Part shown: positions 444-63,426 of the stretch, piece after piece
Position numbering within the stretch: position 1 is the first letter of the stretch
Layout of the letters: each line of letters begins with the position of its first letter
Source: Actinomyces massiliensis 4401292
Lineage (GTDB): Bacteria; Actinomycetota; Actinomycetes; Actinomycetales; Actinomycetaceae
Reading direction: 5' to 3'
DNA: 64,000 nt
NCBI RefSeq assembly: GCF_000269805.1
Contig: NZ_JH711481.1
Coordinates: 980,569-1,044,568, forward strand
Notes under the pieces: generated by a model
What the model saw: the letters and a program-made list of their open reading frames with translations, nothing else
What the model was told of the DNA's origin: nothing
Database searches by the model: none
Program-made: the position numbers and the translations under genes

Positions 444-546
444 GACCGATTTCGAGCCGGAAGCGGACCGATCTCGATGCGGTTTGCGACCGATCTCGGC
501 GCGGAGTACGACCGATCTCGAGCCGGAAGTGGACCGATCTCGGCGG
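444..546 (+). repeat. 22-bp repeat array A (5 units)
   Basis: Five head-to-tail units start at 444, 466, 488, 510 and 532, an exact 22-bp period. Each unit is GACCGATCTCG followed by a variable part around CGGA. The first core has one change (GACCGATTTCG) and the last unit ends right after the core. The core contains a 4+4 bp inverted repeat, CCGA-TC-TCGG. The array sits in the gap before the helicase-like gene. The same family recurs at seven other places in the window. Confidence 0.9.
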
Positions 547-555
547 CTTTGGGGC

Positions 556-640
556 GCGCGTCCGCTCGCATCCTGCGCGTCCGCTCGCATCCTGCGCGTC
601 CGCTCGCCTTCTGCGCCATCTGCGCGTCCGCTCGCGTCCT
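556..640 (+). repeat. 19-bp tandem repeat next to array A
   Basis: Four copies of a 19-bp unit beginning GCGCGTCCGCTCGC start at 556, 575, 594 and 622; the last two are separated by a 9-bp partial copy. The repeat is unrelated to the 22-bp family and was seen only here. Together with array A it fills most of the gap 346-765; no coding sequence is supported in that gap. Confidence 0.8.
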
Positions 641-765
641 GCGCCGCCCGAGTGCTGCGCATAGTTGCGCATAGTGCTGCATCTCCCAATATCCCAGCGG
701 GACAGGTGCGACCCGCCCCGGAGCGTCTGCGCCCTTCGGCGCCCTCCTGCCGATATGTTGGGGAT

Positions 766-3700
766 ATGACGCCTTCACTCTTCTCATTCGGACGCAGCCG
801 GCGTCGCGCGAGCGACCCGCCGGCTCAGCCCGAAGGCGTTGCGGCATCCACTCCGTCGCCGCCCGAACCCAGCGAGGAGCCGGAGCCGCCCGCCGAGCCC
901 CCGGCGCCCCCGGTGTCCCCGGAGCGCCGTGCACTGGTGGAGAACGCCTTGACCGCCTGGCGCGACGAGCTCATCGACCTCGGGGGAGCCTCGAGTCTGG
1001 ATGACATCTCGTTGCTCGACGCCGTTGTGGATCTCACGAACGCCCACCCCTCCGGGCTGGCGCAGCTCTACGCCGGGCGCCCCACGCACCTGGGCAATCT
1101 CGTGCGCGAGCGCGAAGCCCTGGGGCAGGCCCGTCAGAGCCTGAAGGACGTCGCGGGGCACACGGATCTGCTGGCCCGCCAGTTCGGCGTCGCCCCCGTC
1201 TATCTCGCCATCGGCGTGGCGACCTGGACCGAGACCGTTCCGGCCGATGAGCCGGAGCCGCAGCTGTCCTTCCCCTTCACGCCGCGCTCTCGAGGCGCTG
1301 ATGCGGCGGGCGGCTCCGACTCCGATCCGGCCGGCCCGGTGAGCCCCGCCGCCCCGAGCCCGACGACTCCGGCCAGCCCCGCGAGCCCGGCGACTCCGAC
1401 CAGCCCGGCCAGCCCATCAAGCCCCGCCGCCCCGAGCCCGGCGAGCGCGGACGCCGGCATGTCCGCCTCCCGCCGCGCCGCCAGGGCCGCGCAGTACGAC
1501 AGCGCCTCCAGCAGCCGAATGATCGTGCGCAATGTCAACGCCCCCGTGCTGCTGCGCCCCGTGCGACTGTCCAGCGCCACCGCGGAGGCCTCGCTCACCC
1601 TGGACCCGTCCATCGAGGTCAACCCGGTGCTCATTCGGGCACTGCACCGCTACGGCTCGACCACCGATGTCGAGGCCATCGCGCACGCCGCCCTGTCCGC
1701 CGAGGGCTTCACCCCGCGGGCCGCGCTGGCGCGCATCGGGGGCCTGGGGCGGGAGTACCTTCCCGGCTTCGAGATGCACGAGCGCCTCGTCGTGGGCGCC
1801 TTCGTCCACCCGGGTCAGGCACTCGTGGAGGACTTCGACGCCACCATCGAGCGCGCCCGCACCTCCGCGCTCGTCGCCGCGCTCGCCGGGGACGAGATCG
1901 CCCGCGAAGCGCTCGACGTCGAGCTGCCCGCCTCCCGAGCCGAGGACCGCGCCCCCGAGGCCGAGCGCGGCGCCGGCGATCTCGATCCCGCGCAGCTCGA
2001 CGCCGTCGAGGCCGTCGGCTCGGGCGCCTCGCTGCTGCTGGACGCCCCTCCCGGATCCGACGTCGCCGCGTCCCTGGCCGCCGTCGCCGCCGACGCCGCC
2101 GCCTCGGGCCGCACCGTGCTGCATGTGCCCGCCACCAGCGCCGACGGGCACGCCGTCGCGGATGCGCTGCGCGACCTGGGCCTGGGCGACATCGTGCTGG
2201 ACCTGACCGAGGACGCCGCCTGGCGCCGTCACGCGGGCGAGGGCATCAAGGAGGCGCTCGGCGTCGTCCCGCCCGACCTCGACGTCGCCGCCATCGTCGA
2301 TATGCGCGAGCGCCTGATGTCCGTGCGCACGCGCCTGACCCGCTACGTCGGGGCGCTCCACCAGCGCCGCGAGCCCTGGGGGGTCTCCGCCTACGACGCC
2401 CTGCAGAAGCTCGCCGACCTCACTACCGGGCGCGTGCGCGCCCGCACCAAGGAGCGGGTCGCGCCCGGGCGCCTCGAACGCCTCGACGACTCCGGGCGCG
2501 CCCGTGCCGTGGCACTCCTGACCCGCGCTCACATGCTGGGCGTCTTCTCCCCGCGGACCAGGGCGTCGGCCTGGAACGGCATCTCGATCACCGATATCGA
2601 CGAGGCCACCGACGTGCTCGCGCAGCTGGCCCGGCTCGCCGATGACCTGCTGCCGACCGTTCAGCGGCACATCGAGGAGGCCGCCGAGGGGACCGGTCTG
2701 ACCCCCGCCTCCACTCTCGCCGACTGGTGCGAGCAGCTCGACATGCTCGACGGCGTGCGCGACTCCCTCGACATCTTCATCCCCGAGGTCTTCGAGCGCT
2801 CCGCCGCCGACCTGGTCATCGCCACGGCCTCCAGGCGGTGGCGCGAGGAGCGCGACATCGAGATGAGCTCCTCGACCCGTCGCCGCTTCATCAGGCAGGC
2901 CAAGGACCTGGTGCGCCCCGGGCGCGATGTGAGCGACCTGCACGCGGAACTGGTCAAGGTCCAGCAGCGCCGCGAGATCTGGCGCCGCCACGATCCCGAC
3001 GGCGGCTGGCCCACCCTGCCGCCCGGACTGGACGAGATGAAGGCGGTGGCCGCCCGGGCCCGGCGGGCCGTCGCCGAGGTCCAGCCCGTGCTCGGGCGTG
3101 CGCAGGACTCCCCGGAGCTGATGAGCATGCCTCTGGGTGACCTCGAGACCCGTGCGCGCGACCTGGCCGACGACGACACCACGGCCCAGATCCTTCCCGA
3201 GCTCGGCCGTCTCACGACGCAGCTCGACGAGCTGGGCCTGGTGCCGCTGGCCGAGGACCTGGCCGACCGGGCGATCGACTCGGGTCAGATCGAGGATGAG
3301 CTCACCTACTGCTGGTGGTCCTCGCTGCTGGCTCAGATCCTGCGCGACGACTCCGCCCTGGGCGGGCTCGATGTGCACGCCCTCAATGACCTGGCCGACT
3401 CGCTGCGCGAGCTGGACGCCGCCCAGGCCGACTCCCTGGCGGCGCCCGTGGCCCACGCCTGCGCCGGTCGGGTGCGGGCCGCCATTGAGGCGGACAAGGA
3501 GGATGCGCGCGAGCTGTACCGCGCCCTGTCCCGCGACGACGGCGTGCCGCTGCGCGACATCATCGCCGCTCACCGCGTCGCCATGGTGGCCAAGCCGGTG
3601 TGGATCGTTCCGCCTACGCTCGTTCCCCAGGTGCTGAGCCCGGAGGCCGTCGTCGACCTGGCGGTCCTGGATGCGAGCGCCCACATGCCGGTCGCGCAGG

Positions 3701-5259
3701 TGATGCCGGCCTTCGTGCGGGCCGAGCAGGTCCTGGTCGTGGGGGATCCGCGGCGGGCGACCACCGGCCTGGCCGCCGAGCTCGGGCCGCTGCTGCCCAG
3801 CGTCACTCTGCCCACCGGTCGCAACACGCTGGATTCGAGGATCGCCGCCTTCCTGGCGACCAACGGCTACGAGGGCGTCGTCGAGGCCGTGCCCGCCCCG
3901 CCGGGCACCTCCAATCTCTCCCTCGAGCTCGTCGACGGGCGCGGCATGCCGGCCCCCGGGGAGATGGCCGTGGAGTCGGTGCCGACCGAGGTCGATCGCG
4001 TCGTCGACCTGGTCATCGACCATGCGCTGAGCCACCCCGAGAGATCCCTGGCGGTCGTGGCGCTCAACTCCAGGCACGCCGAGGAGATACGCAGGGCCAC
4101 GGCCAACGCCGCAGCCGGGTCCGCGGCCCTGGACGAGTTTTTCGCGGCGGGGATCGCCGAGCCCTTCGTCGTCGTGGACCTGTCCGAGGCGCGCTCGCTG
4201 CGCCGGGACCACGCCATCATCTCCGTCGGCTACGCCAAGACGCCGCACGGCCGGACCATTCACAGCTTCGGTGCCGTCTCCCAGGCCGGGGGAATGGTGG
4301 GGCTCGTGGAGGCGCTGTGCGTCTCCCGCAATCGAGCGCAGGTCGTCTCCTGCCTGGGACCCGACGACCTCGATCCCGAGCGGCTGCATGCTCCGGGGGC
4401 CAGGCTGCTGCGCGAGGTGCTGCTGCGCGCCTCGGGGTCGGACGCCGTGGAGGTCGAGGACGCCGCAACGCCCGATCGGCTCCTGGTGGACCTCGCCGAG
4501 CACCTGTGGCGCAAGGGCCTGGAGGTGGTGCCCCGCTACGGCGTGCCCGGCGGCCCTCACATCCCCCTGGCCATCGGCCACCCCGACTACCCCGGCGAGC
4601 TGTTCGTGGCGGTGCTGACCGACGACGACGCCTATGTGGCCGAGCCGAGCCTGCGGCGTCGTGACCGTCACTGGGTGGAGCGCCTCCAGCACCGAGGATG
4701 GCTGGTGCACACGGCGTTCTCGGCCGGCGTCTTCGTGGACCCCGAGGCCGAGGCACGGCGGGTCGAGGCCCTGGTGCTGTCGGTCCTCACCGAGCGCTCC
4801 GCGGCGGAGCAGGCGCCCCCCGAGCCGCAGATTCCGGCGCACCTGGAGGAGACGGCGTCACCGCCCCCGCCCAGGAGTCCGGATGATACGGAGGAGGTGG
4901 CACCGCCCCCGCCCATCACAGGCGGCGGAGATGGCAGAGCCGGCTCAGACCGTGCAGACGGTACAGAGCGCGGGGACGACCGGCTGAGGATGAACGAGAC
5001 GAGTGACCGGATGGGGCCGGAGATGTCCGCCCCGACTGTCGGTCCCCGTCGGGCTCAGCGGCCTCCGATCGCCGAGGGCCTGCCGTTGCAGGCGTACTCC
5101 GACGACCAGCTCGACGACATGATGGTGTGGATACGCTCCGATGGCGTGCAGCGCGATGAGCAGACCGAGGTCGAGGAGCTGCGGGCGGCGCTCGCGCTGA
5201 CGCGCAACGGCGCAGGCATCAGTGCCGTGCTGTCCAATGCGGTGCGGCGAACCCGGTGA
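766..5259 (+). CDS. Large degenerate superfamily-1 helicase-like protein with C-terminal Vsr-like nuclease domain
   Basis: A 1497-residue protein. The frame is open further upstream, but that part reads through repeat DNA; the ATG at 766 is preferred because a TATGTT hexamer ends 6 nt before it (leaderless geometry). The order of motifs follows actinobacterial AAA/DEAD-like helicases of the DUF4011/RecD2-related group. A Pro/Ala/Ser-rich linker lies around residues 195-235. Around residue 426 the Walker A region reads DAPPGSDVAAS instead of GPPGTGKS; around 963 the Walker B region reads DLAVLDASAH; GDPRR lies near 993; a late motif with PHGRTIHSFG follows. The last 250 residues contain a block (VPRYGVPGG ... 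HPDYPGELFVAVLTDDD ... RRDRHWVERLQHRGW) like the Vsr/DUF559 nuclease fold. Both nucleotide-binding motifs lack the usual Lys and Glu, so ATPase activity is doubtful. The stop overlaps the next start (GTGA). Confidence 0.8.
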   Translation: MTPSLFSFGRSRRRASDPPAQPEGVAASTPSPPEPSEEPEPPAEPPAPPVSPERRALVENALTAWRDELIDLGGASSLDDISLLDAVVDLTNAHPSGLAQLYAGRPTHLGNLVREREALGQARQSLKDVAGHTDLLARQFGVAPVYLAIGVATWTETVPADEPEPQLSFPFTPRSRGADAAGGSDSDPAGPVSPAAPSPTTPASPASPATPTSPASPSSPAAPSPASADAGMSASRRAARAAQYDSASSSRMIVRNVNAPVLLRPVRLSSATAEASLTLDPSIEVNPVLIRALHRYGSTTDVEAIAHAALSAEGFTPRAALARIGGLGREYLPGFEMHERLVVGAFVHPGQALVEDFDATIERARTSALVAALAGDEIAREALDVELPASRAEDRAPEAERGAGDLDPAQLDAVEAVGSGASLLLDAPPGSDVAASLAAVAADAAASGRTVLHVPATSADGHAVADALRDLGLGDIVLDLTEDAAWRRHAGEGIKEALGVVPPDLDVAAIVDMRERLMSVRTRLTRYVGALHQRREPWGVSAYDALQKLADLTTGRVRARTKERVAPGRLERLDDSGRARAVALLTRAHMLGVFSPRTRASAWNGISITDIDEATDVLAQLARLADDLLPTVQRHIEEAAEGTGLTPASTLADWCEQLDMLDGVRDSLDIFIPEVFERSAADLVIATASRRWREERDIEMSSSTRRRFIRQAKDLVRPGRDVSDLHAELVKVQQRREIWRRHDPDGGWPTLPPGLDEMKAVAARARRAVAEVQPVLGRAQDSPELMSMPLGDLETRARDLADDDTTAQILPELGRLTTQLDELGLVPLAEDLADRAIDSGQIEDELTYCWWSSLLAQILRDDSALGGLDVHALNDLADSLRELDAAQADSLAAPVAHACAGRVRAAIEADKEDARELYRALSRDDGVPLRDIIAAHRVAMVAKPVWIVPPTLVPQVLSPEAVVDLAVLDASAHMPVAQVMPAFVRAEQVLVVGDPRRATTGLAAELGPLLPSVTLPTGRNTLDSRIAAFLATNGYEGVVEAVPAPPGTSNLSLELVDGRGMPAPGEMAVESVPTEVDRVVDLVIDHALSHPERSLAVVALNSRHAEEIRRATANAAAGSAALDEFFAAGIAEPFVVVDLSEARSLRRDHAIISVGYAKTPHGRTIHSFGAVSQAGGMVGLVEALCVSRNRAQVVSCLGPDDLDPERLHAPGARLLREVLLRASGSDAVEVEDAATPDRLLVDLAEHLWRKGLEVVPRYGVPGGPHIPLAIGHPDYPGELFVAVLTDDDAYVAEPSLRRRDRHWVERLQHRGWLVHTAFSAGVFVDPEAEARRVEALVLSVLTERSAAEQAPPEPQIPAHLEETASPPPPRSPDDTEEVAPPPPITGGGDGRAGSDRADGTERGDDRLRMNETSDRMGPEMSAPTVGPRRAQRPPIAEGLPLQAYSDDQLDDMMVWIRSDGVQRDEQTEVEELRAALALTRNGAGISAVLSNAVRRTR

Positions 5260-5480
5260 GCGCTCGACGGCGTGCGGTGGCGCTCTCGCCGCAGGACCGG
5301 GAGCGGATCGCGCGCGGTGAACTCCCGGAGGCGGACGCCGAGGTCGAGCGCCGTCGGGGTCTCGATGCTCTGACGGATGCGCTCGCGCGAGACGGCGGGG
5401 CGCTCGGGCCGCAGGACGACGGCGGTGCGATCGCCAACGACGCCCGACTCCTGCGCGAGGTTCCCCCGCACTGGGGCTGA
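5256..5480 (+). CDS. Small conserved-looking protein coupled to the helicase-like gene
   Basis: A 74-residue, charged, probably cytoplasmic protein (begins MSARRRAVALSPQDRERI). Its GTG start overlaps the stop of the preceding large gene in a GTGA arrangement, which argues for translational coupling and for a real gene. I recognise no domain. A partner or accessory role for the helicase-like protein is inferred from position only. It ends convergently with the tetR-type gene 16 bp away. Confidence 0.6.
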   Translation: MSARRRAVALSPQDRERIARGELPEADAEVERRRGLDALTDALARDGGALGPQDDGGAIANDARLLREVPPHWG

Positions 5481-5495
5481 TCGCCGGATTCTCAG

Positions 5496-6233
5496 TCAGC
5501 CTGCGGCGGCGCGGACGAGCGGTTCTGAAGGCGCAGAAGATGCACTGGGACCGGCCGAATCAGCCGAATCGGCATGCGCATCGTCGTCCGCATTCTGGGT
5601 GGCGTGGGTGGGCGGCACCGCCGGGACGCCGTGCTCCGGGATGTCCGCGCCCACCGCGCGCAGCACGAAGGTGTCCAGGGCCTCGAGGTAGGCGGTGCGG
5701 GCGGTCGGCTCCGTCGGCGTCGGGCGCCCGCCCATGACGCAGGCGTGCACGAGCGGGATGACCTGAGCCGGGTCCTGGGGCGGGATCGCCTCGGTGGCGA
5801 CGGCGTCGGTGAGGATCTGGGCGAGCATCTGCGCCATGAGTCCGGCATGTGCGCGCAGACGACCGGCCGTTCCGCGCGAGACCGAGTTCGCCAGCGGGCC
5901 GGTGGAGGGGAAGTGGAAGTGCCGTTTGAGCAGGGCCTGCTGGCGCACGTAGACGCGCAACCTGTCGATGGGATCCTCGACGCCGGCCAGCGAGGCGGAG
6001 AGCTCTTCGGCATAGCGGGCCGTCTCATGCTCCATGAACGCCAGGAGGAGATCCTCCTTGTCCGCGAAGTGGTTGTAGACCGCGGTGCGCCCGACACCGG
6101 CGTGCGCGGCGACGTCCGACAGGGTGATCTTGTCGAAGGAGTGCTTGGCCATCAGCTCCGCGAGGGCGTCGAACAGGGCGGTCCGTGTTCGTTCGCGGTG
6201 CTCGGCGAGTGAACTTCCCATGATCTTCGGCAT
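5496..6233 (-). CDS. TetR/AcrR family transcriptional regulator
   Basis: A 245-residue protein. Residues 10-60 form a typical TetR DNA-binding domain (ALFDALAELMAKHSFDKITL, then a helix-turn-helix ending VGRTAVYNHFADKEDLL). The C-terminal ligand-binding half is not assignable to a ligand class, and the last 40 residues are a low-complexity Ala/Asp/Ser tail. The start at 6233 has a TAGGGT hexamer 6 nt upstream. A DtxR/IdeR-like sequence overlaps that hexamer. The regulated target is not obvious, since the neighbours are transcribed independently. Confidence 0.9.
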   Translation of the reverse strand: MPKIMGSSLAEHRERTRTALFDALAELMAKHSFDKITLSDVAAHAGVGRTAVYNHFADKEDLLLAFMEHETARYAEELSASLAGVEDPIDRLRVYVRQQALLKRHFHFPSTGPLANSVSRGTAGRLRAHAGLMAQMLAQILTDAVATEAIPPQDPAQVIPLVHACVMGGRPTPTEPTARTAYLEALDTFVLRAVGADIPEHGVPAVPPTHATQNADDDAHADSADSAGPSASSAPSEPLVRAAAG

Positions 6234-6251
6234 GAGGCCACCCTAACCTAC
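6233..6251 (-). promoter_or_regulatory. Candidate DtxR/IdeR iron box over the tetR-type promoter
   Basis: Read on the minus strand the site is GTAGGTTAGGGTGGCCTCA, matching the DtxR/IdeR consensus TTAGGTTAGGCTAACCTAA at 14 of 19 positions, including an uninterrupted TAGGTTAGG. It covers the -10-like TAGGGT, so binding would block transcription. The assignment is inference from the consensus alone. Confidence 0.35.
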
Positions 6252-6293
6252 GAGGTGACGGAATCGCGATAACCGTCATAAAGGAGGTGCTCT

Positions 6294-6797
6294 TCATGAT
6301 GCCGCAGTGGCTGCGGCGCGGATCGCCGCCAGAATGGGCAGGTCGGCCGGCAGCCAGGGCAGCGAATCGAGCTCCTCCCATGCGACCCATCGCACCGACT
6401 CGTGCGCGGCGCCGGCTTGCGGACGACTGTCCGGGACGGTCGGCTCCGCGAGCCACACGCGCATCCGATACCCGTGCAGGACGGGCCAGGCGGGGGCGTC
6501 GTCGTCGGGGAAGTCCTGGGCGCGATGGGCGGCGCCGGGTGCTGGGGCCGCCACGGCCAGGTCGTGGGGCGGACGAACCTCGTCTCCGAGGGTGACGACC
6601 AGGTCGAGCTCTTCGGCCAGCTCGCGGATCAGGGCCCGGGTCGGCGTCTCACCCGGCTCGACCTTGCCGCCGGGCAGCTCGTACTGGCCGGCGTGCTCGG
6701 CCGGGTAGGAGCGGGCTGCGCACAGCATGGCGGTGGGGCGGACCAGGGAATCCACGACGGCGGCGGCCACGACGAGCCGCGAGGAACGGGCGGTCAT
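6294..6797 (-). CDS. Nudix hydrolase (MutT-like, 8-oxo-dGTPase type)
   Basis: A 167-residue protein starting MTARSSRLVVAAAVV. A longer frame reaches 6905, but the ATG at 6797 has a TAGAGT hexamer 7 nt upstream and is the start at which family similarity begins. The Nudix box is complete (GKVEPGE ... RELAEEL), matching G-x5-E-x7-REUxEExGU. Small MutT-type enzymes hydrolyse oxidised or non-canonical nucleoside triphosphates; the exact substrate cannot be read from sequence. It is divergent from the M50-like gene at 6914. Confidence 0.85.
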   Translation of the reverse strand: MTARSSRLVVAAAVVDSLVRPTAMLCAARSYPAEHAGQYELPGGKVEPGETPTRALIRELAEELDLVVTLGDEVRPPHDLAVAAPAPGAAHRAQDFPDDDAPAWPVLHGYRMRVWLAEPTVPDSRPQAGAAHESVRWVAWEELDSLPWLPADLPILAAIRAAATAAS

Positions 6798-6913
6798 GCC
6801 AGGCACTCTAGCGCCGCTGCCTCCAGTGTCATGCGTCGAGATCGGAAGCAGGAGGCGTTGGAAAACAGCTGGAGCACAGCCGCAGACAACCCGGATCTGG
6901 CACACTTCCCGCC

Positions 6914-7648: not shown

Positions 7649-7759
7649 GAGCCGAATGCGCCGGTGCCGCGCTGCCCGGCGGCCTCGTCGAGGGGCGTCC
7701 CGGCCCGGGGCCGGCTGACTCGGCAACCGGCTAACTCAGCGGCTCAGCGAATCAGCGAA

Positions 7760-8476: not shown

Positions 8477-8673
8477 GCGAGTAGTCAACAACCTGAAGCG
8501 CGCACGAGGTCCAGGACACGGGCGGTCGGGCGCCACGACGGCGCGCGTGCGCCCGATACGCTGGGGCCACTCCGAATCGTCGACGCACACAGTCACACAC
8601 AAGCCACTCAGTACTCGTCTCAAGTACTCATCGCCACTCACCGCCACTCGTCCGACCTCACCCAAGGAGCATC

Positions 8674-15111: not shown

Positions 15112-15478
15112 CAGTCACGCCTCGGTGGTCCGCCGTGAGTCTGAGCGCTGAGGCTGCGCGAGACGTGTCGTTGTCCAGCTCCCGCCGGCGTTGGAGGTGG
15201 AGTGGAATGGTTCGAATCGTGACACCGCAGGCTCGGCCGGAGGCCGGTGACCCGCACACTCGATGACGACCTGCTGCGAGCAGAACCGCGGAATCATGCG
15301 GAAACCAATCGTCAGAGATGGTCGATGCGATGCTCCCATGTGCGCAGACCCCCTGGTATGCACACGGGAGCGCGGCGATCGATCGCAACTTCCGGTAAGG
15401 AATCCCATGATTTCAAGGGAAAGTCGTATTCCGCGTCGCGGACGAGAGCAAACGATGGCAAACGAGGGCGGTAAGGCG
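15112..15478. other. Intergenic stretch without recognisable feature
   Basis: This 367-bp gap lies between two convergent genes. I see no convincing coding frame, RNA gene or repeat family member. A short tRNA-T-arm-like string near 15208 has no matching acceptor or anticodon arm. Confidence 0.5.
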
Positions 15479-16340: not shown

Positions 16341-16422
16341 GACCGATCTCGATGCGGAAGCGGACCGATCTCGACGCGGGTTGCGACCGATCTCGAGCCG
16401 GAGTACGACCGATCTCGGCGGG
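16341..16422 (+). repeat. 22-bp repeat array B (4 units)
   Basis: Units start at 16341, 16363, 16385 and 16407. All cores are GACCGATCTCG, with third-element variants GAT, GAC, GAG and CGG before the CGGA-like part. The array lies in the divergent gap between xthA and the SDR gene, upstream of both. Confidence 0.9.
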
Positions 16423-25286: not shown

Positions 25287-25319
25287 CGACATCGGTCCGG
25301 TTCGGCGCCGAGATCGATC
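25287..25319 (-). repeat. Decayed two-unit relic of the 22-bp repeat
   Basis: Two imperfect cores, CGACATCGGTC at 25287 and CGAGATCGATC at 25309, lie exactly 22 bp apart in the minus orientation, upstream of pyrE. Each differs from the consensus by one base in the 11-bp core. Confidence 0.6.
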
Positions 25320-40919: not shown

Positions 40920-41000
40920 GACCGATCTCGGTGCGGAAGTGGACCGATCTCGACGCGGAGTGCGACCGATCTCGGTGCGGATTACGACCGATCTCGGCGT
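40920..41000 (+). repeat. 22-bp repeat array C (4 units), invading a gene end
   Basis: Units start at 40920, 40942, 40964 and 40986. The array covers the 3' end of the LppM-type lipoprotein gene on the opposite strand and supplies its stop codon. Confidence 0.9.
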
Positions 41001-41692
41001 CGGCGTCGGCGCAGGATGATCGCCGCGCCCACCGCGAGTCCGGCGAGCACCGCAACCGCCACGAGCCCGGCGATCCACAGCCCGAAGCGGTCGATGAAGC
41101 TCAATCCCTCGTTCGGCGTCGCGTAGCCCGACGCGGTGACACCGTTGACGAGACTGTCGGCGCCGTCCCAGGTGGCGGTGCGCCCCGAGATGCTCCCGCC
41201 GCCGGCGTCGATGACCGCGCCCGGGAAGGTGACCGACAGGTGGGCGTCGGTGCCGATCGGCTCGGATGTGGAGGCGGCGCCATCGGGGTCCCCGGCGCCG
41301 GTATCGATGGGGGCGAGAGTGACGATGTAGCGGTCGCCGTCGCGCGAGACGAGCGGGACGGTGCCGGCGGCCTCGGCCTCATCGGCGTCGGGGATCTTGA
41401 CGGCCGTAACCTTGACCTCGCAGCCGACCCCCTCCTCGTCGTCGGCCGAGCCGATGCGGGTGGATGTGACGTCGGCGCCCTCCGAGGCGCCCACGAGAGA
41501 CGGATCCGCGTAGTCTTGGCAATCGGTGTCCTCGGTCAGCAGCGAACCGGTCGTGTCGCGCATGACGAGAGTGGCGTCGTAGGTGTCGGAGGCGTCGATG
41601 GTCATGTCCATGTTGGCGGTGCAGGCGGACAGGCCGAGCGACGCGGTCGCGACCAGGGCGGCGATCTGGGCGGTGCGGCGTCGGATCTTCAC
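40982..41692 (-). CDS. LppM-domain lipoprotein, paralog 5
   Basis: A 236-residue protein. Unlike its paralogs it has a lipobox (LGLSAC) and so is probably lipid-anchored as well as having a C-terminal helix (LWIAGLVAVAVLAGLAVGAA). The LppM block reads LSVTFPGAVIDAGGG ... GRTATWDGA. GTG at 41692 with TAGCGT 7 nt upstream; the longer frame to 41926 lacks a signal-like start. The last residues (RRRRRRDRS) and the TAA come from repeat array C, so the original C-terminus may have been replaced. Confidence 0.75.
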   Translation of the reverse strand: MKIRRRTAQIAALVATASLGLSACTANMDMTIDASDTYDATLVMRDTTGSLLTEDTDCQDYADPSLVGASEGADVTSTRIGSADDEEGVGCEVKVTAVKIPDADEAEAAGTVPLVSRDGDRYIVTLAPIDTGAGDPDGAASTSEPIGTDAHLSVTFPGAVIDAGGGSISGRTATWDGADSLVNGVTASGYATPNEGLSFIDRFGLWIAGLVAVAVLAGLAVGAAIILRRRRRRDRS

Positions 41693-47486: not shown

Positions 47487-47568
47487 AACCGATTTCGGTG
47501 CGAAGTACGACCGATCTCGAGCCGGAGATTGACCGATCTCAGCGCGGAACTCGACCGATCTCGGTGAG
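47487..47568 (+). repeat. 22-bp repeat array D (4 units)
   Basis: Units start at 47487 (core AACCGATTTCGG), 47509, 47531 (core GACCGATCTCAG) and 47553. More substitutions are present than in arrays E and G. It lies between the membrane-protein pair and purD, ending 56 bp before the purD -10. Confidence 0.85.
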
Positions 47569-56658: not shown

Positions 56659-56849
56659 GAGCTGATCCTGCACCACATGCGTGTGATGCGAGGCACTTTC
56701 GAGTGTGGTGTGTCGCGTGATCTGAGGACTTCGCCCACATCTGCCCTCAGGGGAGGGCGACCGATGTTTGCGTTGAGTGCTTTGAGGAGTAATGATGCAG
56801 TGACATCCCAGGGCCGACTCCCGAGGCCCGCTATCACTGGAGGACCTGA

Positions 56850-57281: not shown

Positions 57282-57380
57282 GCTCATTAATCCCAGCAAG
57301 CAAGATGTTGTTGTCGGCCCCTGGCCTGGCTCTCTGGGATTGCCGAGCCCCACGGGCCTGGCCGGTGATAATTCGATGGT

Positions 57381-57426
57381 AATGGCGCGTGCCCGCAGCG
57401 GAATGCCTGCGCGGGTGCGCGCCATT
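57381..57426 (+). terminator. Hairpin after the TM2 gene
   Basis: AATGGCGCG at 57381-57389 pairs with CGCGCCATT at 57418-57426, extended by GCCCGC/GCGGGT-type pairing inside with two imperfect positions. The rest of the gap up to the purL start (57604) is GC-rich with short GGTGCCCGG and CGCCGTCTG direct repeats and no gene. Confidence 0.5.
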
Positions 57427-57603
57427 GCTGTGTTTCGGGGTGCCCGGGGTGCCCGGGGCGCCCGCGCCGTCTGTGGCCTCTATGCCGTCTGCGCCGTCTG
57501 CGCCATGCTCGCCGGATGAGTCGTGCCTGGCCGACGGTGCCCCGCGTCCTCGGCCCGGGTATCCTCGCGCATGGTCCCACTCCGCACCCACTCAGGAGCA
57601 TCC

Positions 57604-60042
57604 ATGGCCGTCGAGCCCACCGCGCCCACGACATCCGCGAGCTCTGCCGACAGTGCTGGCAGCACAGGTAGCGCCGGCCGGCCCCGGCCCGTCGAGCATC
57701 CAGATACCGTCGCCGACGCCGCCGCCACCCCCGAGCGTGAGATGCCCTATGCCGAGCTCGGGCTCAAGGACGACGAGTACGCCTCCATCAAGAGCTTGCT
57801 GGGTCGTCGTCCCACCAGCGCCGAACTCGCCATGTACTCCGTCATGTGGTCCGAGCACTGCTCCTACAAGTCCTCCAAGATCCACCTGCGCCAGTTCGGG
57901 GAGAAGACGACCCCCGAGATGCGTGAGCACCTGCTGGTGGGCATGGGTGAGAACGCCGGCGTCGTCGACATCGGGGACGGCTGGGCGGTCACCTACAAGG
58001 TCGAGTCCCACAACCACCCCAGTTATGTCGAGCCCTACCAGGGCGCTGCCACCGGTGTGGGCGGGATCGTGCGCGACATCATCTCCATGGGCGCGCGGCC
58101 CGTGGCCGTCATGGACCAGCTGCGCTTCGGCGCGCCCGAGCACCCGGACACCGCTCGCGTGGTCCACGGCGTCGTGGCCGGAGTGGGCGGCTACGGCAAC
58201 TGCCTGGGCCTGCCCAACATCGGCGGCGAGACCGAGTTCGACCCGTCCTACCAGGAGAATCCGCTGGTCAATGCCCTGTGCGTGGGCGTGCTGCGCCACG
58301 ACGACATCCACCTGGCCAACGCGAGCGGGACGGGCAACAAGGTGGTGCTCTTCGGCGCGCGCACCGGCGGGGACGGCATCGGCGGGGCCTCCATCCTGGC
58401 CTCGGAGTCCTTCGAGGACGGCATGCCCGCCAAGCGGCCGAGCGTCCAAGTGGGCGACCCCTTCATGGAGAAGGTCCTCATCGAGTGCTGCCTGGACCTG
58501 TTCGCGGGCGATCTCGTGCTCGGCATCCAGGACCTGGGGGCGGCCGGCATCTCCTGCGCCACCAGCGAGCTCGCCTCCAACGGCGACGGCGGCATGCACG
58601 TGGACCTCGAGAACGTCCTCCTGCGCGACCCCTCGCTGACGGCCGGCGAGATCCTCATGAGCGAGTCCCAGGAGCGCATGATGGCCGTCGTCGCCCCCGA
58701 CAAGCTGGACGCCTTCATGGAGGTCATCGACACGTGGGACGTCGAGGCCGCCGTCATCGGGGAGGTCAACGGCTCGGGGCGCCTGACCATCGACCACTTC
58801 GGGGAGCGGATCGTCGACGTCGACCCGCGCACCGTGGCCCACGAGGGCCCCACCTACGAGCGCTCCTACGCCCGCCCCGCCTGGCAGGACGCCCTCAACG
58901 AGGACACCACGGCCTCACTGGAGCGGCCCGGCACCGCCGCCGGGCTCGATGAGCAGGTGCGCGCCGTCGTCGCCAATCCCAACCAGGCCTCGCCCGCATG
59001 GGTCACCGACCAGTACGACCGCTTCGTGCGCGGGGGGACTGCCCTGGCCCAGCCCGACGACGCCGGCGTCATCCGCGTGGATGAGGAGACCGGCCGCGGC
59101 GTGGCCATCGCCACCGACGCCAACGGGCGCTTCACCAAGCTCGACCCGGCCGCCGGTGCCGCCCAGGCGCTGGCCGAGTCCTACCGAAACGTGTGCACCG
59201 TGGGCGCCCGGCCCCTGGCCGTCACCGATTGCCTCAACTTCGGCTCGCCGGAGGACCCCGACGCCATGTGGCAGCTCGTCGAGGCCATCACCGGCCTGGC
59301 CGACGCCTGCAAGACCATGGGTGTGCCCGTCACCGGCGGCAACGTCTCCCTGTACAACTCACACGGGAAGGTCAAGGGCAGGATCGACTCCTCCATCAAC
59401 CCCACGCCCGTCGTCGGGGTCCTCGGCGTCATGGAGGACGTGCGCCGCGCCAACCCGTCGGGCTGGTTCGAGGAGGGGCTGGCGATCGTCGCCCTGGGGG
59501 AGACCCGCGATGAGCTCGACGGCTCGGCCTGGGCGCGCGTCGTCCACGACCACCTCGGCGGCCAGCCCCCGCGCGTGGACCTGGAGGCCGAGATGGCGCT
59601 CGGGCGCGTACTGGTGGCCCTGAGCGAAGCCGACGGACCGGATGCGCCCGATGGCGGGCGGCTCGTGCGCGCCGCCCACGACTGCTCCGCCGGGGGGCTC
59701 ATTCAGACCCTGGTGGACGCCGTCCTGCGGCACGGGGTGGGGGCCAGCATCGACCTGACTCAGCTTCAGGGGCGCGACGACGTGGACGATTTCACGGCCC
59801 TGTTCTCCGAGTCCGGGGCGCGCGCACTGGTGGCGGTGCCCGAGTGGGCCGTGGAGGCCGTCGTTGCCGCGGCCGAGGCCGAGGACGTCGCCTGGGCGCG
59901 TCTGGGCACCACCGGCGGCGACATGCTGGTCGTCTCCGGTGGGGACGTCCTGTCCGATGGCGGGGCCGGGCGGCCTCTGGTGTTGGACCTGGCCGAGCTG
60001 CGCGAGGGCGCTGAGGCGACGCTGCCCGAGCTATTCGGCTGA
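57604..60042 (+). CDS. purL: FGAM synthase large subunit PurL
   Basis: An 812-residue enzyme of purine synthesis step 4; with separate PurS and PurQ it is the small-PurL type, slightly longer than the usual 740-770 residues owing to a variable N-terminus. Features are [87 protein letters not shown] precedes the ATG at 57604; an in-frame ATG at 57571 follows a TATCCT hexamer and is an alternative. Confidence 0.97.
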
Positions 60043-60052
60043 GCTGTTCGGC

Positions 60053-60062
60053 GGGGGGGGGG
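60053..60062 (+). repeat. Run of ten G just after purL
   Basis: An uninterrupted G10 tract starts 11 bp after the purL stop. Such a run is prone to slippage and to assembly error. Confidence 0.8.
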
Positions 60063-60078
60063 CATGGGGGCGTCATAC

Positions 60079-60288
60079 TCACAATCCCACCTCCCCCGCT
60101 CGGGCTCCGATGCTGCCCGGTACGGCGGCGAGGCGCATATTGCCGTTGATTGCTGACACGGTCGCGGTGGCTATGCGGGAGCGGTTGGAGCGATCAGAGG
60201 AGATGGCAAAGGCTGGGCGCAGGTAGCCGGGTTCTGAGCCGAGTGGATCGTCGAAGTCGATCCACCAGATCTCGCCGCGGGCTACTAC
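60079..60288 (-). pseudogene. Truncated MazF/PemK-type toxin
   Basis: Minus-strand translation reads VVARGEIWWIDFDDPLGSEP then GYLRPAFAISSDRSNRSRIA then TATVSAINGNMRLAAVPG, matching the first 60 residues of MazF endoribonucleases (RRGEIWWxDLxxPxGSEPGxRRPxLVVQSDxFNRSxIxT). The normal C-terminal half is absent: the frame stops at 60079 near the purL end. No start codon adjoins the conserved part; the frame upstream runs into a 9-bp repeat. No mazE-like gene is seen. Confidence 0.7.
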
Positions 60289-60289
60289 C

Positions 60290-60352
60290 CCCGCGCTCCC
60301 CGCGCTCCCTGCACTTCCCGCGCTCCCCGCGCTTCCCGCGCTTCCCGCGCTC
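60290..60352. repeat. 9-bp tandem repeat (7 units) before the mazF fragment
   Basis: Seven units of CCCGCGCTC/CCCGCGCTT (one diverged, CCTGCACTT) run from 60290 to 60352. On the minus strand they would encode Ser-Ala-Gly repeats fused to the mazF fragment. The gap 60043-60588 otherwise holds no intact gene. Confidence 0.85.
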
Positions 60353-60588
60353 CCGCTTGAATCAGTGCGCGCCCGGTGAGGGGTGCGTTCTCCTGGGGCG
60401 TGTCGTCCGCGAGGGCGTCGAGCACATGCTCCTGTGTTCGCTATCACTTCGCGATAGCGTGAAACTGGCGTCAATCGAAGGAGGTTCATCGAGGAGGTAT
60501 TGAGGAATATTCATTATTATTATTCAGGCCACGACCATCGGAATGATCAGATCCCATCACGTGCACTCGGCATCGGAAGGAATACCTG

Positions 60589-60759
60589 ATGAAAGCCCGA
60601 AAAAAAGGCCCGATCTCGATAGTCGCCGCTACTATTTTCTCACTGTCCGCAATTGTTGAGCCAGTTGGTGCTGCTCAGGCGAAGGATTCTGCTGACGCTA
60701 GCGTCGGAGGGCTCCCCGATAAGAGATATGATGGATTCATTGAGAGTGGGTGGAACTAA
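60589..60759 (+). CDS. Small secreted peptide
   Basis: A 56-residue frame preceded by GGAAGGA. It starts MKARKKGPISIVAATIFSLS with a basic n-region, hydrophobic core and likely signal-peptidase site after AAQA, leaving about 25 residues (KDSADASVGGLPDKRYDGFI then ESGWN). No family recognised. Its stop overlaps the next start (TAATG), which supports translation of both. It could be a peptide signal, a small effector or a leader. Confidence 0.55.
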   Translation: MKARKKGPISIVAATIFSLSAIVEPVGAAQAKDSADASVGGLPDKRYDGFIESGWN

Positions 60760-61145
60760 TGGGGGAACAACAGGATGTCGCACTGCGTGGAGCGATCGTT
60801 GCCGTTCTAGTGGTGCTCAATATGAGTGTCGTTTGCTTCTACGTGCTGTGGGAGGTGGCGGATACGATCGCTGTCAATCGCGTTGAGGAGCACGGTTTCG
60901 ATCCGCAGCAGCTGCTGCCTCACAATATTTTGTTCTGGCTCGCCGCGCAGGCTTCGCTGCTCAGCCTCCTGGCTCTTGATGTTCTTGCGATTGTCGCGTG
61001 GCGCCGACGGCGGCGTTGGCAGAAGCCGCAGACCGCCGTCAACGATTCGCCTGAGCCGGTGAGCCGGGTGGGCCAGCAGCGGGTCTCGGCGTCACCGCGG
61101 TCAGAGAGTGACCGGATCGGCAATCCTGAGCCGTCGATGCGCTGA
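60759..61145 (+). CDS. Small two-helix membrane protein coupled to the secreted peptide
   Basis: A 128-residue protein starting MGEQQDVALRGA at an ATG overlapping the upstream stop; a GTG at 60750 is an alternative. Two helices (IVAVLVVLNMSVVCFYVLWE; FWLAAQASLLSLLALDVLAI) flank an extracytoplasmic loop, followed by a basic RRRRRW motif and a Ser/Pro-rich cytoplasmic tail. No family recognised. Export, immunity or sensing of the 56-residue peptide is a guess from coupling only. A strong hairpin follows the stop. Confidence 0.55.
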   Translation: MGEQQDVALRGAIVAVLVVLNMSVVCFYVLWEVADTIAVNRVEEHGFDPQQLLPHNILFWLAAQASLLSLLALDVLAIVAWRRRRRWQKPQTAVNDSPEPVSRVGQQRVSASPRSESDRIGNPEPSMR

Positions 61146-61187
61146 GCCCTATCGGGGCCTACCGGGTGGCTCCCCACCAGTAGGGCC

Positions 61188-61228
61188 CCGCACGGACCGC
61201 CGGCGTCCGCCCCCGGCGGTCCGTGCGG
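61188..61228 (+). terminator. Perfect 16-bp hairpin after the small membrane protein
   Basis: CCGCACGGACCGCCGG at 61188-61203 pairs perfectly with 61213-61228 around a 9-base loop. A second, weaker hairpin (GGTGG/CCACC) lies just before it. No T run. The remaining gap to 61552 holds repeat array E. Confidence 0.55.
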
Positions 61229-61380
61229 TGCGCAGTCTTCGGAGTAGAGGTACGACCGGTATGCGGGGCTGCTCTTTCTGTCTGCTGGCGGTGGTGCGCT
61301 TGTGATTCTTCCTGCCGCCCGAGTCCCAGCTCTCACTCATACAGGGCTGGGGGCAATGTCACGGATTCGCTGCGGAACCG

Positions 61381-61484
61381 GACCGATCTCGGTGCGGATT
61401 ACGACCGATCTCGGGCCGGAGTTCGACCGATCTCGCGGCGGAATGCGACCGATTTCGGCGCGGAGTTCGACCGATCTCGGTGAA
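61381..61484 (+). repeat. 22-bp repeat array E (5 units)
   Basis: Units start at 61381, 61403, 61425, 61447 (core GACCGATTTCGG) and 61469, with a further diverged unit recognisable about 22 bp before the first. It lies upstream of the DUF3152 gene. Confidence 0.92.
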
Positions 61485-61552
61485 CGAGGAGGGCGGCTGG
61501 GACGGCTCATCGCAGCGGTCGCCTGCGGCGGACCTGTGCCTACTATGAAGTC

Positions 61553-62494
61553 ATGTGCCCGTCGTCCTCGCGGTCGCCGCGGCGGCCCGTCCGCTCGTCG
61601 TCGGCATCGACCGGCCGCTATCGCACGGATTCAGCGGATTCAGAAGCTCGCACCACCACCCGTATGTCTGGCGGAGGTGCGCGCCGGCGTCGTCGTCTCG
61701 TGCTGACCGAGCCGTGGAAGCTAATTCGCGCTCTCGTCATTCTCGTCGCCGTCGTCGCGCTCGTCGGCCTGGGCGCGCGCATGTGGGCCGGCCGTGGTGC
61801 GGGCGACCAGGCGGTCCCCGCGTCCACTCCGGGGCAGGAGCTGGCTGCGGACGCCGAGGCCCCGGCGTCCGCCGAGTCGGATGCCGAGGCCGGCACCGGG
61901 CCGTCGCAGACCCCCGCACCGCGGGTTGATGATCAAGGCTTCGCCCACAGCGACGTCGTCGGGGATGACACCTGGACGGTCGCCGACCCGGTGGCCCCGT
62001 CCCGGCCGGGTGCCGACACGGTTTACCACTACGTTCTCCGGGCTGAGAACGGCACCGATGTCGATGCGGCCGCCGCTGCCTCCGCGGTCGAGAGCGTTCT
62101 CAACGACGACCGCGGTTGGCGCACTGCCGAGGGGGTCTCCTTCGAGCAGGTCAGCGACCCCGATTCGGCGGACTTCGTCCTGTCCATCGCCACGCCGCCA
62201 ACGGCGGATGCGCTGTGCTCCCCGCTGGAGACGGCCAGCATGTGGAACTGCCGCAGCGAGGAGAACGTCGTCCTCAACTCCGACCGCTGGACTTACGGCA
62301 GCCCTACCTTCTCCAGCCTCGACGCCTATCACATCTATGTGATCAATCACGAGGTCGGGCATTTCCTCGGGCACGAGCACGAGTACTGCGCCGGCGCCGG
62401 CCTCAAGGCGCCCACCATGGCGCAGCAGAGTCGCACCCGCGATGGCGGCTGCACGGAGAACGGCTGGCCCACCGAGGATAACCAGGGCCCCTGA
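61553..62494 (+). CDS. DUF3152 zinc-metalloprotease-like protein
   Basis: A 313-residue protein with a basic N-terminus, one anchor helix (LIRALVILVAVVALVGLGAR), a Pro/Ala/Glu-rich linker and an extracytoplasmic DUF3152 domain (about 160-313): VYHYVLRAENGTDVDAAAAA, DDRGWRTAEGVSFEQV, VVLNSDRWTYGSPTF, then INHEVGHFLGHEHEYC with a zinc-type HExxHxxxxxH pattern, and MAQQSRTRDGGCTENGWP. Found throughout actinobacteria with unproven activity. TACTAT lies 6 nt before the ATG at 61553; an ATG at 61664 is an alternative. Confidence 0.8.
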   Translation: MCPSSSRSPRRPVRSSSASTGRYRTDSADSEARTTTRMSGGGARRRRRLVLTEPWKLIRALVILVAVVALVGLGARMWAGRGAGDQAVPASTPGQELAADAEAPASAESDAEAGTGPSQTPAPRVDDQGFAHSDVVGDDTWTVADPVAPSRPGADTVYHYVLRAENGTDVDAAAAASAVESVLNDDRGWRTAEGVSFEQVSDPDSADFVLSIATPPTADALCSPLETASMWNCRSEENVVLNSDRWTYGSPTFSSLDAYHIYVINHEVGHFLGHEHEYCAGAGLKAPTMAQQSRTRDGGCTENGWPTEDNQGP

Positions 62495-62546
62495 ACGGTT
62501 GCGACGGCCGCCCCCGACACGGCCGCCCCGGCTGCTGCGGCTGCTG

Positions 62547-62646
62547 CCGAGATCGGTCGAGTTCCGCGTCGAGATCGGCCCGCTTCCGGCTCGAGATCGG
62601 TCCAGTTTCGCGTCGAGATCGGTAGTATTTCGGCTCGAGATCGGTC
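62547..62646 (-). repeat. 22-bp repeat array F (5 units, reversed)
   Basis: Five cores (CGAGATCGGTC on the plus strand) end at 62558, 62580, 62602, 62624 and 62646. It is the only intact array in reverse orientation and faces array E across the DUF3152 gene. Confidence 0.92.
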
Positions 62647-62670
62647 GGAGCTGCCGCGGCCATTGGCTTG

Positions 62671-62700
62671 ATGCTCAGCATCATGAACGACATCATGATG
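62671..62700 (+). promoter_or_regulatory. Candidate operator of the vapB-vapC operon
   Basis: ATGCTCAGCAT is a palindrome, and CATCATGA occurs at 62679 and 62691, ending 25 bp before vapB. VapB-type antitoxins usually repress their own promoter through such paired sites. This is inference from layout. Confidence 0.35.
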
Positions 62701-62724
62701 TGCTGTTTGGTGTAGGGGGATGCT

Positions 62725-62922
62725 GTGCGCACGACGGTCACACTGGATGACGAGCTTGTTGACAAGGCTGCTGCTTTGACGGGGATCGAGGAGCGTTCCG
62801 CCTTGCTCCGTGAGGCGATGAAGGTGCTTGTTCGAGTCGAGAGCGCCCGTAGGCTCGCCGCTCTTGGAGGTGCGGATCCTCATGCCCAGGCGGCGCCGCG
62901 CCACCGGAATGCGCACGTGTGA
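62725..62922 (+). CDS. vapB: VapB-type antitoxin
   Basis: A 65-residue protein, GTG start behind AGGGGGA. The N-terminus RTTVTLDDELVDKAAALTGI with ALLREAMKVLV is the ribbon-helix-helix layout of the VapB family (type II toxin-antitoxin). The variable C-terminus (RRLAALGGADPHAQ) carries the usual toxin-binding ALGG motif. It appears intact and overlaps the vapC start by 4 bp. Confidence 0.8.
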   Translation: MRTTVTLDDELVDKAAALTGIEERSALLREAMKVLVRVESARRLAALGGADPHAQAAPRHRNAHV

Positions 62923-63240
62923 TCCTCGTCGACACCAACGTCTGGATCGATCACCTTCATGCGCGAGAACCGGTACTCGCCGCCATCCTTGAACAGGACG
63001 AAGCGGCGAGAGTTCCCGGGGGCGCTTGACGATATGAAGAGGTTTCGGCCTGTTGGCGACGGCGACGTGCGTTGGTTGGTCGAGAAGCGTCGGCTATGGG
63101 GGAAAGGTCTTTCTGCAGTGGATGCCCATCTGCTGGCGTCAGTCCTGAGCACGGCCGGTTCTCTGATGTGGACGCGGGAGAAGCGGCTTATGGCGGCGGC
63201 GCGTGAACTCGACGTGCTGTTCATCGAACGACCTGCGTGA
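62919..63240 (+). pseudogene. VapC PIN-domain toxin, broken by an internal deletion with frameshift
   Basis: The start (VILVDTNVWIDHLHAREPVL) has the first PIN-domain Asp, and the C-terminal part (DDMKRFRPVGD ... RLWGKGLSAVDAHLLASVL) has the later acidic residues, but they are in different frames. The junction lies near 62995, where LEQD jumps to KRREFPGALDD; the middle segment that normally carries the conserved Glu is missing. The RNase should be inactive while VapB remains. Confidence 0.75.
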
Positions 63241-63300
63241 CCGACGACAGCCGCAGCGCGGCGGGTGAGATCTGTCCGCCGTCGGCAATTGGGGGAGTGG

Positions 63301-63426
63301 GACCGATCTCGTGGCGGAAGCGGACCGATCTCGGCACGAAGTACGACCGATCTCGTGGCGGAAGCGGACCGATCTCGGCGCGGAGTGCGACCGATCTCGG
63401 CGCGGAGTGGGACCGATCTCGGTGAA
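63301..63426 (+). repeat. 22-bp repeat array G (6 units)
   Basis: The longest array: units start at 63301, 63323, 63345, 63367, 63389 and 63411, all with intact GACCGATCTCG cores; units 1 and 3 are identical over all 22 bases. It sits between the broken vapC and the phosphatidyltransferase gene. The remaining gap to 63575 holds nothing else I can name. Confidence 0.95.

What the first reader, a model, noticed from the sequence alone, without database searches (positions are those of the whole stretch)
444..63426. Dispersed family of intergenic arrays with an exact 22-bp period
Seven intact arrays (444, 16341, 40920, 47487, 61381, 62547, 63301) with 4-6 units each, 33 in total, plus a decayed one at 25287. 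Every unit starts with the core GACCGATCTCG, then a variable part containing CGGA. The period is exactly 22 bp everywhere, about two helical turns, so cores lie on one face of DNA. All arrays are between genes or at gene ends. No known family (CRISPR, REP, ERIC, DnaA, parS) has this layout to my knowledge. Possible roles are a binding array for an unknown nucleoid or regulatory protein, or a spreading non-coding element.
Basis: seen in the sequence. Interest (0 to 1): 0.9.

Follow-up and report, generated by a model that had tools for sequence, protein, structure and literature searches.

The report
Repeat arrays paired with nuclease-like gene
Short DNA arrays made of 22-letter units, scattered just behind genes in Actinomyces bacteria, look like the ends of an undescribed self-spreading element whose probable master copy carries one gene for a DNA-binding, nuclease-like protein.

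Summary
In detail: 33 cores in seven intact arrays plus a decayed one, strict 22-bp period, 444 exact core pairs genome-wide. Searches found the family only in Actinomyces.

New: (1) intergenic regions with two arrays have them facing outward in 24 of 24 cases (own genome and sister species). (2) The outer end hugs stop codons: 61 of 161 arrays within 40 bp, against 10 for inner ends. (3) Orthologous palindromes keep cores but replace spacers on both arms. (4) One gene (AbiEi-like region, DUF559-like motifs) has a full-length relative in 21 of 49 genomes. Outward arrays bracket it closely in 16 of 21; none faces inward. Those arrays carry the genome's own core and period, also dispersed genome-wide where tested. 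The gene sits at four or more different loci.

Best reading: a mobile gene with terminal arrays, plus many gene-less derivatives; it works like REPIN/RAYT but with an unrelated protein (Y1 transposase: 0 of 49). Binding, cutting and movement are untested.

The parts
444..542 (+). array, 5 cores, 22-bp period; outer end to the right; the sequence just left of the window (C1:979218-980568) is withheld
16341..16417 (+). array, 4 cores, between an exo/endonuclease-phosphatase-family gene (minus strand, 43 bp) and a short-chain dehydrogenase gene (plus strand, 85 bp)
25287..25319 (-). decayed array, 2 cores, outer end 10 bp after the stop codon of a redoxin-family gene; A. gerencseriae and A. israelii have arrays in the same orientation here, A. 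israelii as an outward pair with a 323-bp centre
40920..40996 (+). array, 4 cores; the outer core forms the last codons of the LppM-domain gene 40982-41692 (minus strand); orthologous array in A. israelii
47487..47563 (+). array, 4 cores (first decayed), 114 bp before a phosphoribosylglycinamide synthetase gene; A. gerencseriae has an outward pair here with an array in the same orientation
61381..61479 (+). array, 5 cores, about 220 bp before a DUF3152 gene
62548..62646 (-). array, 5 cores, left arm of an outward-facing inverted pair; outer end 53 bp after the stop codon of the DUF3152 gene
63301..63421 (+). array, 6 cores, right arm of the outward-facing inverted pair
62647..63300 (.). centre of the pair (654 bp) with short ORFs that by eye look like remnants of an antitoxin/PIN-domain toxin pair (62725-62922 and 62919-63240); no family search was run on them

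Best explanation
The arrays are the terminal, protein-binding ends of a family of mobile or formerly mobile elements of Actinomyces. The presumed complete form is about 1.3-2 kb: one gene between two outward-facing arrays. The gene codes a protein of about 360 residues with an AbiEi-like region (the DNA-binding antitoxin family) and a C-terminal region with DUF559 / restriction-endonuclease-like motifs. In this genome it lies at C1:1,112,435-1,113,520. The arrays in the window are gene-less derivatives: single arrays, palindromic pairs and pairs around other DNA. Proposed mechanism (inferred): the protein binds successive 22- or 23-bp units through its AbiEi-like part and nicks or cuts DNA at or near the array. 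Repair or strand transfer then places arrays next to 3' gene ends and terminators, and gene conversion from broken arrays makes spacers uniform within a genome while the bound core stays fixed. Shown: anatomy, outward pairing, stop-codon polarity, gene-array linkage, matching cores, different loci, spacer replacement. Inferred: binding, cutting, movement.
For: Full-length relatives (E<1e-40; my threshold, next value 2.8e-27) in 21 of 49 genomes. With a core chosen for each genome from its own flanks, outward arrays lie within 800 bp upstream and 300 bp downstream in 16 of 21, one side only in the other 5, and no inward array in 0 of 21; in two of the five (G000, G049) the second array is present farther off, 629 and 487 bp. 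Control: 3 of 608 own genes (>=100 aa) are bracketed by outward arrays within 700 bp, one of them this gene; in ten 20-kb stretches of G008/G010 the only 2 of 179 genes bracketed within 200 bp are this gene in each genome. Flanking cores and periods differ between genomes and match what is dispersed there: GCCGGTTTCG/22 bp in G034 (65 exact pairs genome-wide, at most 5 in any other genome); 23-bp type in G025 168, G043 44, G029 38, G014 24, G036 21; ACCGGTCTCG in G008, G010, G018 and the canonical core in G000, G011, G015. Different loci: between S17 and L14 genes in G008, G010, G018, G044; between a MoCF-domain and a MoaC gene in G025, G026, G036; beside a NUDIX/histidine-phosphatase gene in G000, G015 (G011, G049 by eye); beside a glycogen phosphorylase gene in G034. 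The S17-L14 gap is 1620-1685 nt in the four genomes with the gene and 323-1328 nt in the 21 of 30 loci where S17 was found within 1.5 kb. AbiEi profiles match 19 of 19 members (best 4e-10); DUF559 8 of 19 (best 2.5e-5), MTES_1575 REase 4 of 19 (best 1e-3) at E<=1. AbiEi proteins bind 23-bp repeats (PMC7319586, passages seen). Two-array regions outward in 24 of 24. Spacers replaced with flanks 89-93% identical: core 2-3 of 44, spacer 10-14 of 22 differences.
Against: No binding, cleavage or movement was observed. No target-site duplication was seen by eye. DUF559 similarity is weak (8 of 19 members; own protein no Pfam hit at E<=5) and a PDB profile search found nothing (best E 0.57). No structure was predicted. 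Four genomes have arrays but no full-length gene: G012 (14; 10), G013 (13), G030 (9; 5), G007 (5 of the G034 type). Some gene copies have only one close array (G014, G040, G033). Distant paralogues occur in most genomes (matches in 45 of 49), so the family as a whole is not array-specific. The centres of own composite elements do not resemble the gene element. Arrays persist at orthologous sites, which also fits a host function (loci were chosen because they held arrays).
Confidence: 0.6

Rival explanations
1. The AbiEi-like protein is an autoregulated DNA-binding regulator, and the dispersed arrays are its genomic sites with a host role at 3' gene ends, for example polar roadblocks against transcriptional read-through. 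The nuclease-like part would be secondary or inactive.
For: Outer ends within 40 bp of a facing stop codon in 61 of 161 arrays, inner ends in 10; single arrays between tandem genes have the outer end towards the stop in 41 and towards the start in 18 (p 0.004); arrays at the same place and orientation in sister species; C-rich tract outside the outer end (48% C against 35% after array-free stops); AbiEi proteins autoregulate through 23-bp repeats (PMC7319586, passages).
Against: Does not explain the gene with its arrays at four or more loci, the 24 of 24 outward pairing that includes tandem and divergent contexts, or the spread of about 500-bp centres in one lineage (63 matches in G000, up to 93% identity; 30 in G015; 0 in G011). 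Arrays between divergent genes also exist.
Confidence: 0.22
2. The arrays act as nucleic-acid hairpins (bidirectional terminators or cruciforms), and the tandem units are only the stem.
For: In G008/G010, 18 aligned palindromes form 33-bp stems: 99.8% of cells paired, 14 pairs changed on both sides; many lie between convergent genes.
Against: Of 62 cells that depart from the commonest pair, 60 changed on both sides, one on one side (G-U) and one is unpaired; this points to copying of one arm from the other rather than slow RNA-type covariation. Twenty-four single arrays of the own genome fold no better than shuffles (mean z -0.13 and +0.56). In the own clade the arms mismatch in the spacers.
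Confidence: 0.08
3. REP/REPIN elements moved by a RAYT (Y1 transposase).
For: Same ecology: many copies, extragenic, behind genes, inverted pairs (PMC3733652 abstract and passages, PMC3116915 abstract and one section).
Against: Y1_Tnp PF01797: 0 of 49 Actinomyces genomes, while the same search rings in 5 of 14 control genomes. The unit is not palindromic and the period is a strict direct 22 bp.
Confidence: 0.03
4. Passive tandem repeats copied by slippage and recombination; the gene is bracketed because arrays happen to be common.
For: Unit number varies between orthologous arrays.
Against: 16 of 21 closely bracketed against 3 of 608 and 2 of 179 control genes, with matching cores that differ between genomes.
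Confidence: 0.07

Closest known systems
REP / REPIN / BIME with RAYT (TnpA-REP)
   Same: Many dispersed extragenic copies behind genes; inverted doublets that can form hairpins; single-copy partner gene flanked by the repeats; gene-less copies outnumber it.
   Different: Unit not palindromic; head-to-tail 22- or 23-bp arrays; no Y1 transposase in 49 genomes; the partner resembles AbiEi plus DUF559. The tandem REP arrays described in PMC3116915 (section 12) have spacings of 72 and 112 bp.
AbiEi antitoxins (type IV AbiE systems)
   Same: AbiEi profiles match all 19 aligned members; AbiEi proteins bind 23-bp repeats before their own genes (PMC7319586, passages).
   Different: No conserved toxin gene was seen beside this gene in the 13 neighbourhoods listed (by eye, families checked for ten neighbours); extra DUF559-like C-terminal region; arrays dispersed genome-wide.
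IS elements with MITE derivatives
   Same: A gene with inverted ends and gene-less copies with the same ends.
   Different: Ends are tandem arrays; no known transposase family matched; no target-site duplication recognised.
Iterons and other tandem protein-binding arrays (recalled)
   Same: Direct repeats of about 22 bp, two helical turns.
   Different: Not one origin or promoter but dispersed behind genes, with an inverted partner.

Membership tests
REP/REPIN with RAYT | Y1 (RAYT) transposase gene | tested here: not met
   PF01797: 0 of 49 genomes, control genomes 5 of 14
REP/REPIN with RAYT | 20-40 bp palindromic unit | tested here: not met
   24 single arrays fold no better than shuffles; unit is a direct repeat. 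Inverted pairs in G008/G010 do form stems
REP/REPIN with RAYT | many extragenic copies downstream of genes | tested here: met
   444 exact pairs; stop-codon proximity
REP/REPIN with RAYT | partner gene flanked by the repeats | tested here: met
   16 of 21 both sides within set distances, 0 of 21 inward, but a different protein
IS/MITE | recognised transposase | tested here: not met
   Pfam, NCBIfam and PADLOC scans of 19 members: no transposase
IS/MITE | target-site duplication | tested here: inconclusive
   none seen by eye at outer ends; no closely related empty site was available
IS/MITE | same element at different loci | tested here: met
   gene with arrays at four or more loci
AbiE toxin-antitoxin | AbiEi-type protein | tested here: met
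   19 of 19 members match AbiEi profiles; only 4 matches to Pfam AbiEi models at E<=1
AbiE toxin-antitoxin | adjacent AbiEii toxin gene | tested here: not met
   neighbours in 13 loci differ and none was recognised as such; small genes may be missed
CRISPR | repeat of 23 bp or more with unique spacers and cas genes | tested here: not met
   11-bp core, 11-bp constrained spacer with constant CGG and recurring modules; cas genes not searched
PD-(D/E)XK nuclease (DUF559) | conserved acidic and lysine motif in fold | tested here: inconclusive
   invariant E240, D271, E282, K288 and weak family hits; no structure predicted

The most novel reading that the evidence does not exclude
A new class of bacterial mobile element: an AbiEi-like DNA-binding protein joined to a DUF559-type nuclease domain, bracketed by tandem 22/23-bp arrays, that seeds and homogenises its own binding arrays behind genes across the chromosome. 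Each species has its own core and period, a natural series of paired DNA-binding specificities.
Probability: 0.5. Interest if true: 0.88.

Novelty: new variant of a known kind. Interest (0 to 1): 0.75.

Why it matters
If right, REP-like repeat-and-gene partnerships arose at least twice from unrelated proteins, and a widespread, poorly understood protein type (AbiEi-like with DUF559) gains a DNA partner and a testable role. The varied cores and periods across Actinomyces give natural protein-DNA pairs for learning how these proteins read DNA. It also shows a short repeat that keeps its core while its spacers are replaced within a species, which makes gene conversion between short dispersed repeats testable.

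Tried and rejected
RAYT, CRISPR, known RNA families (gathering threshold, window only) and viral origin (IMG/VR scan: 0) were tested and rejected. Gene cassettes carried between arrays: with one or more genes between neighbouring arrays the orientations are mixed (own 22: -+ 6, ++ 6, +- 6, -- 4; sister 25: -+ 9, ++ 8, -- 5, +- 3), so ordinary neighbours are not cargo. DNA-uptake-type single sites: only 4 single exact cores stood outside arrays in 464 kb. RNA folding of single arrays gave nothing. A lag test on 60-kb samples found no 22-bp signal in G014 and G034, yet both have arrays with other cores: that sample test was too weak. Comparing own composite centres with the gene element found no relation. 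PDB profile search found nothing.

Literature: ten searches listed no description of these arrays or of such a gene with arrays; from most papers I saw only the listing. Read: PMC3733652 (outline with abstract, passages), PMC3116915 (outline with abstract, section 12), PMC12306157 (passages), PMC7319586 (passages).

Limits: gene positions come from a gene finder I wrote, not a standard tool; arrays overlapping its genes (5 of 82 own, 8 of 92 sister) were dropped before the stop-codon counts. Loci L165-L184 were chosen mostly because they hold inverted pairs, so the 17 of 18 outward regions in G008/G010 are biased and left out of the 24 of 24; the one two-array region of G026 was '--'. In the alignment I used 18 of the 26 palindromes (those with exactly two units per arm and a 4-5 nt loop). 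In 'UP' and 'DOWN' are exchanged for loci on the minus strand (L215, L218, L220, L223, L224, L232); one search corrects this. could judge only plus-strand loci; one search repeats it for 30 loci (9 without S17 within 1.5 kb: the four with the insertion, and G023, G028, G036, G042, G048, unexplained).
Full report
1. The observation. The window holds seven intact arrays and one decayed array of an 11-bp core, GACCGATCTCG, repeated every 22 bp. The count of 33 cores is right. The chance expectation is about 4 core hits and 37 were found, 34 of them in arrays. In 864 kb of this genome (window plus 40 neighbouring stretches) there are 82 arrays of two or more cores; 247 of 254 core-to-core distances are exactly 22 bp. 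The whole genome has 444 exact core-N11-core pairs and none of the reversed pattern.

2. Where it occurs. The exact pair pattern occurs in 7 of 213 genomes of the family, all of one genus. With up to three mismatches 24 of 49 genomes of the genus have it, reversed control 0 in all. A three-core pattern in 396 genomes of the order found four Actinomyces genomes and five genomes elsewhere with a single hit each, probably chance. Viral contigs: none. Cores that have diverged further would be missed by these patterns, and some turned up later (point 6).

3. Anatomy. The unit is core (1-11), a variable triplet (12-14), CGG (15-17), and a variable five-base module (18-22). Positions covary within each module and hardly between them: among 263 spacers, 113 distinct. 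Beyond the last core the sequence usually reads GCG or a close variant, then becomes unique and purine-rich, that is C-rich in the sense of the adjacent gene. I call this the outer end. Gene calls come from a simple finder of my own. In the own genome and the sister loci the outer end lies within 40 bp of a facing stop codon in 61 of 161 arrays, the inner end in 10. When one intergenic region holds two arrays, they face outward in 13 of 13 own regions and 11 of 11 sister regions, in tandem and divergent as well as convergent contexts. G008/G010 give 17 of 18 but were partly chosen for inverted pairs, and the only such region in G026 is not outward. The centres range from 4 nt to about 700 nt. 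Many own pairs share a noncoding centre of about 500 bp, with 63 matches in the own genome (up to 93% identity), 30 in A. israelii and none in A. gerencseriae. So centres have multiplied within lineages.

4. Evolution. Arrays sit at the same places, in the same orientation, in related species, although unit numbers differ; the loci compared were chosen because they held arrays. At one locus G008 has an extra array around a small ORF that G010 lacks. In the related genomes G008 and G010 the core is GACCGGTCTCG and tight palindromes are common. At three orthologous palindromes whose flanks are 89-93% identical, cores differ at 2-3 of 44 positions and spacers at 10-14 of 22. In 18 such palindromes 60 cells differ on both sides of a pair, one on one side only, one is unpaired. 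The two arms are therefore kept identical by copying, and spacers are replaced within a genome. This suits DNA-level conversion better than slow RNA-type covariation. Single arrays do not fold as RNA better than shuffles.

5. The partner gene. Among ORFs lying between outward arrays, one protein appeared both in the own genome (C1:1,112,435-1,113,520) and in G010/G008; the two are 47% identical over 348 residues. A search of the genus gave a full-length relative in 21 of 49 genomes (one with an internal TGA, one in two pieces) and more distant relatives in most others, 45 of 49 in all. In 16 of 21 the gene is closely bracketed by outward arrays on both sides, typically 80-240 bp before the start and 17-93 bp after the stop. 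In none does an array face inward. The other five have one close array; in two of these the second array is farther away (G000 629 bp, with another gene between; G049 487 bp). Controls: 3 of 608 own genes, including this one, and in G008/G010 2 of 179 genes, both this gene.

6. The arrays match the gene, genome by genome. The bracketing arrays have different cores and periods in different species, for example GCCGGTTTCG at 22 bp in G034, ACCGAACTCG at 22 bp in G026 and a 23-bp type in G025, G029, G036, G043 and G014. The cores used were read from these flanks. An independent genome-wide check agrees where it was made: the G034 core pair occurs 65 times in G034 and at most 5 times elsewhere; the 23-bp pattern occurs 168 times in G025, 44 in G043, 38 in G029, 24 in G014, 21 in G036, 10 in G012, 5 in G030, 2 each in G040 and G026 and not in the other 40 genomes. 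Not checked genome-wide: G049, G035, G044, G028, G009. Arrays without the gene exist: G012, G013, G030, and five pairs in G007.

7. It moves, or has moved. The gene with its arrays lies between the S17 and L14 ribosomal genes in G008, G010, G018 and G044; between a MoCF-domain and a MoaC gene in G025, G026 and G036; next to a NUDIX/histidine-phosphatase gene in G000 and G015 (G011 and G049 by eye); next to glycogen phosphorylase in G034 (Pfam names for ten neighbours, others by eye). The S17-L14 gap is 1620-1685 nt with the gene and 323-1328 nt in the 21 of 30 other loci where S17 was found. In the occupied genomes the element lies just behind a hairpin that follows S17. No target-site duplication was recognised.

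8. The protein. All 19 aligned members match AbiEi profiles of PADLOC (best 4e-10); DUF559 is matched by 8 and the MTES_1575 restriction-endonuclease model by 4 at E up to 1; one matches a DUF559 model of NCBIfam. Invariant residues include E240, D271, E282 and K288, which I read as a PD-(D/E)XK-like set; this is a reading, not a test. AbiEi proteins are winged-helix autoregulators that bind 23-bp repeats (PMC7319586, passages), close to the unit length here.

9. Mechanism. I think the protein binds the units in series, acts on DNA at the array, and so spreads and homogenises arrays; single and paired arrays would be gene-less derivatives that gather behind genes because insertion there is tolerated or targeted. 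A host role at 3' ends is the strongest rival and is not exclusive.

10. Comparison. It works like REPIN/RAYT: a repeat family behind genes with inverted doublets and a partner gene flanked by the repeats. It is not a member: Y1 transposase is absent in 49 genomes, and the unit is a direct repeat, not a palindrome. I rate it a new variant of a known kind; the bolder reading, a new class of mobile element, is given separately.

Noticed in passing
window 15283-15374 (C1:995851-995942): A copy of the CCCATGTGC...GCACATGGG hairpin from the centre of the own composite elements, here without arrays; short matches of this part occur alone at many places in G000 and G015.
   Followed up: partly
L128:11502-11576, L132:12122-12255: A different dispersed repeat of about 75-130 bp in G008 and G010, beside some arrays; many matches in both genomes.
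   Followed up: no
window 556-645: A 19-bp tandem repeat (GCGCGTCCGCTCGCATCCT) directly behind the outer end of the array at 444.
   Followed up: no
G010 contigs C2, C7, C12, C19: Array matches start within 15-126 bases of contig ends, as if the assembly broke at these repeats.
   Followed up: no
L130:15665-15680, L133:3701-3716, L133:19241-19296, L172:1033-1088, L173:1038-1092, L180:1046-1101, L218 and L221 gene flanks: CCACAG/CTGTGG motifs resembling DnaA boxes (recalled) lie just inside the arrays of gene elements and of small elements in several genomes.
   Followed up: partly
G007: Five array pairs with the core and spacers of G034 but no full-length partner gene.
   Followed up: no
C1:604410 and C1:680871 outer flanks: Two composite elements share about 20 bp of sequence outside the outer core (AGAAACAAAAYAAATGAGGCG), so the element may have an extended form.
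   Followed up: no
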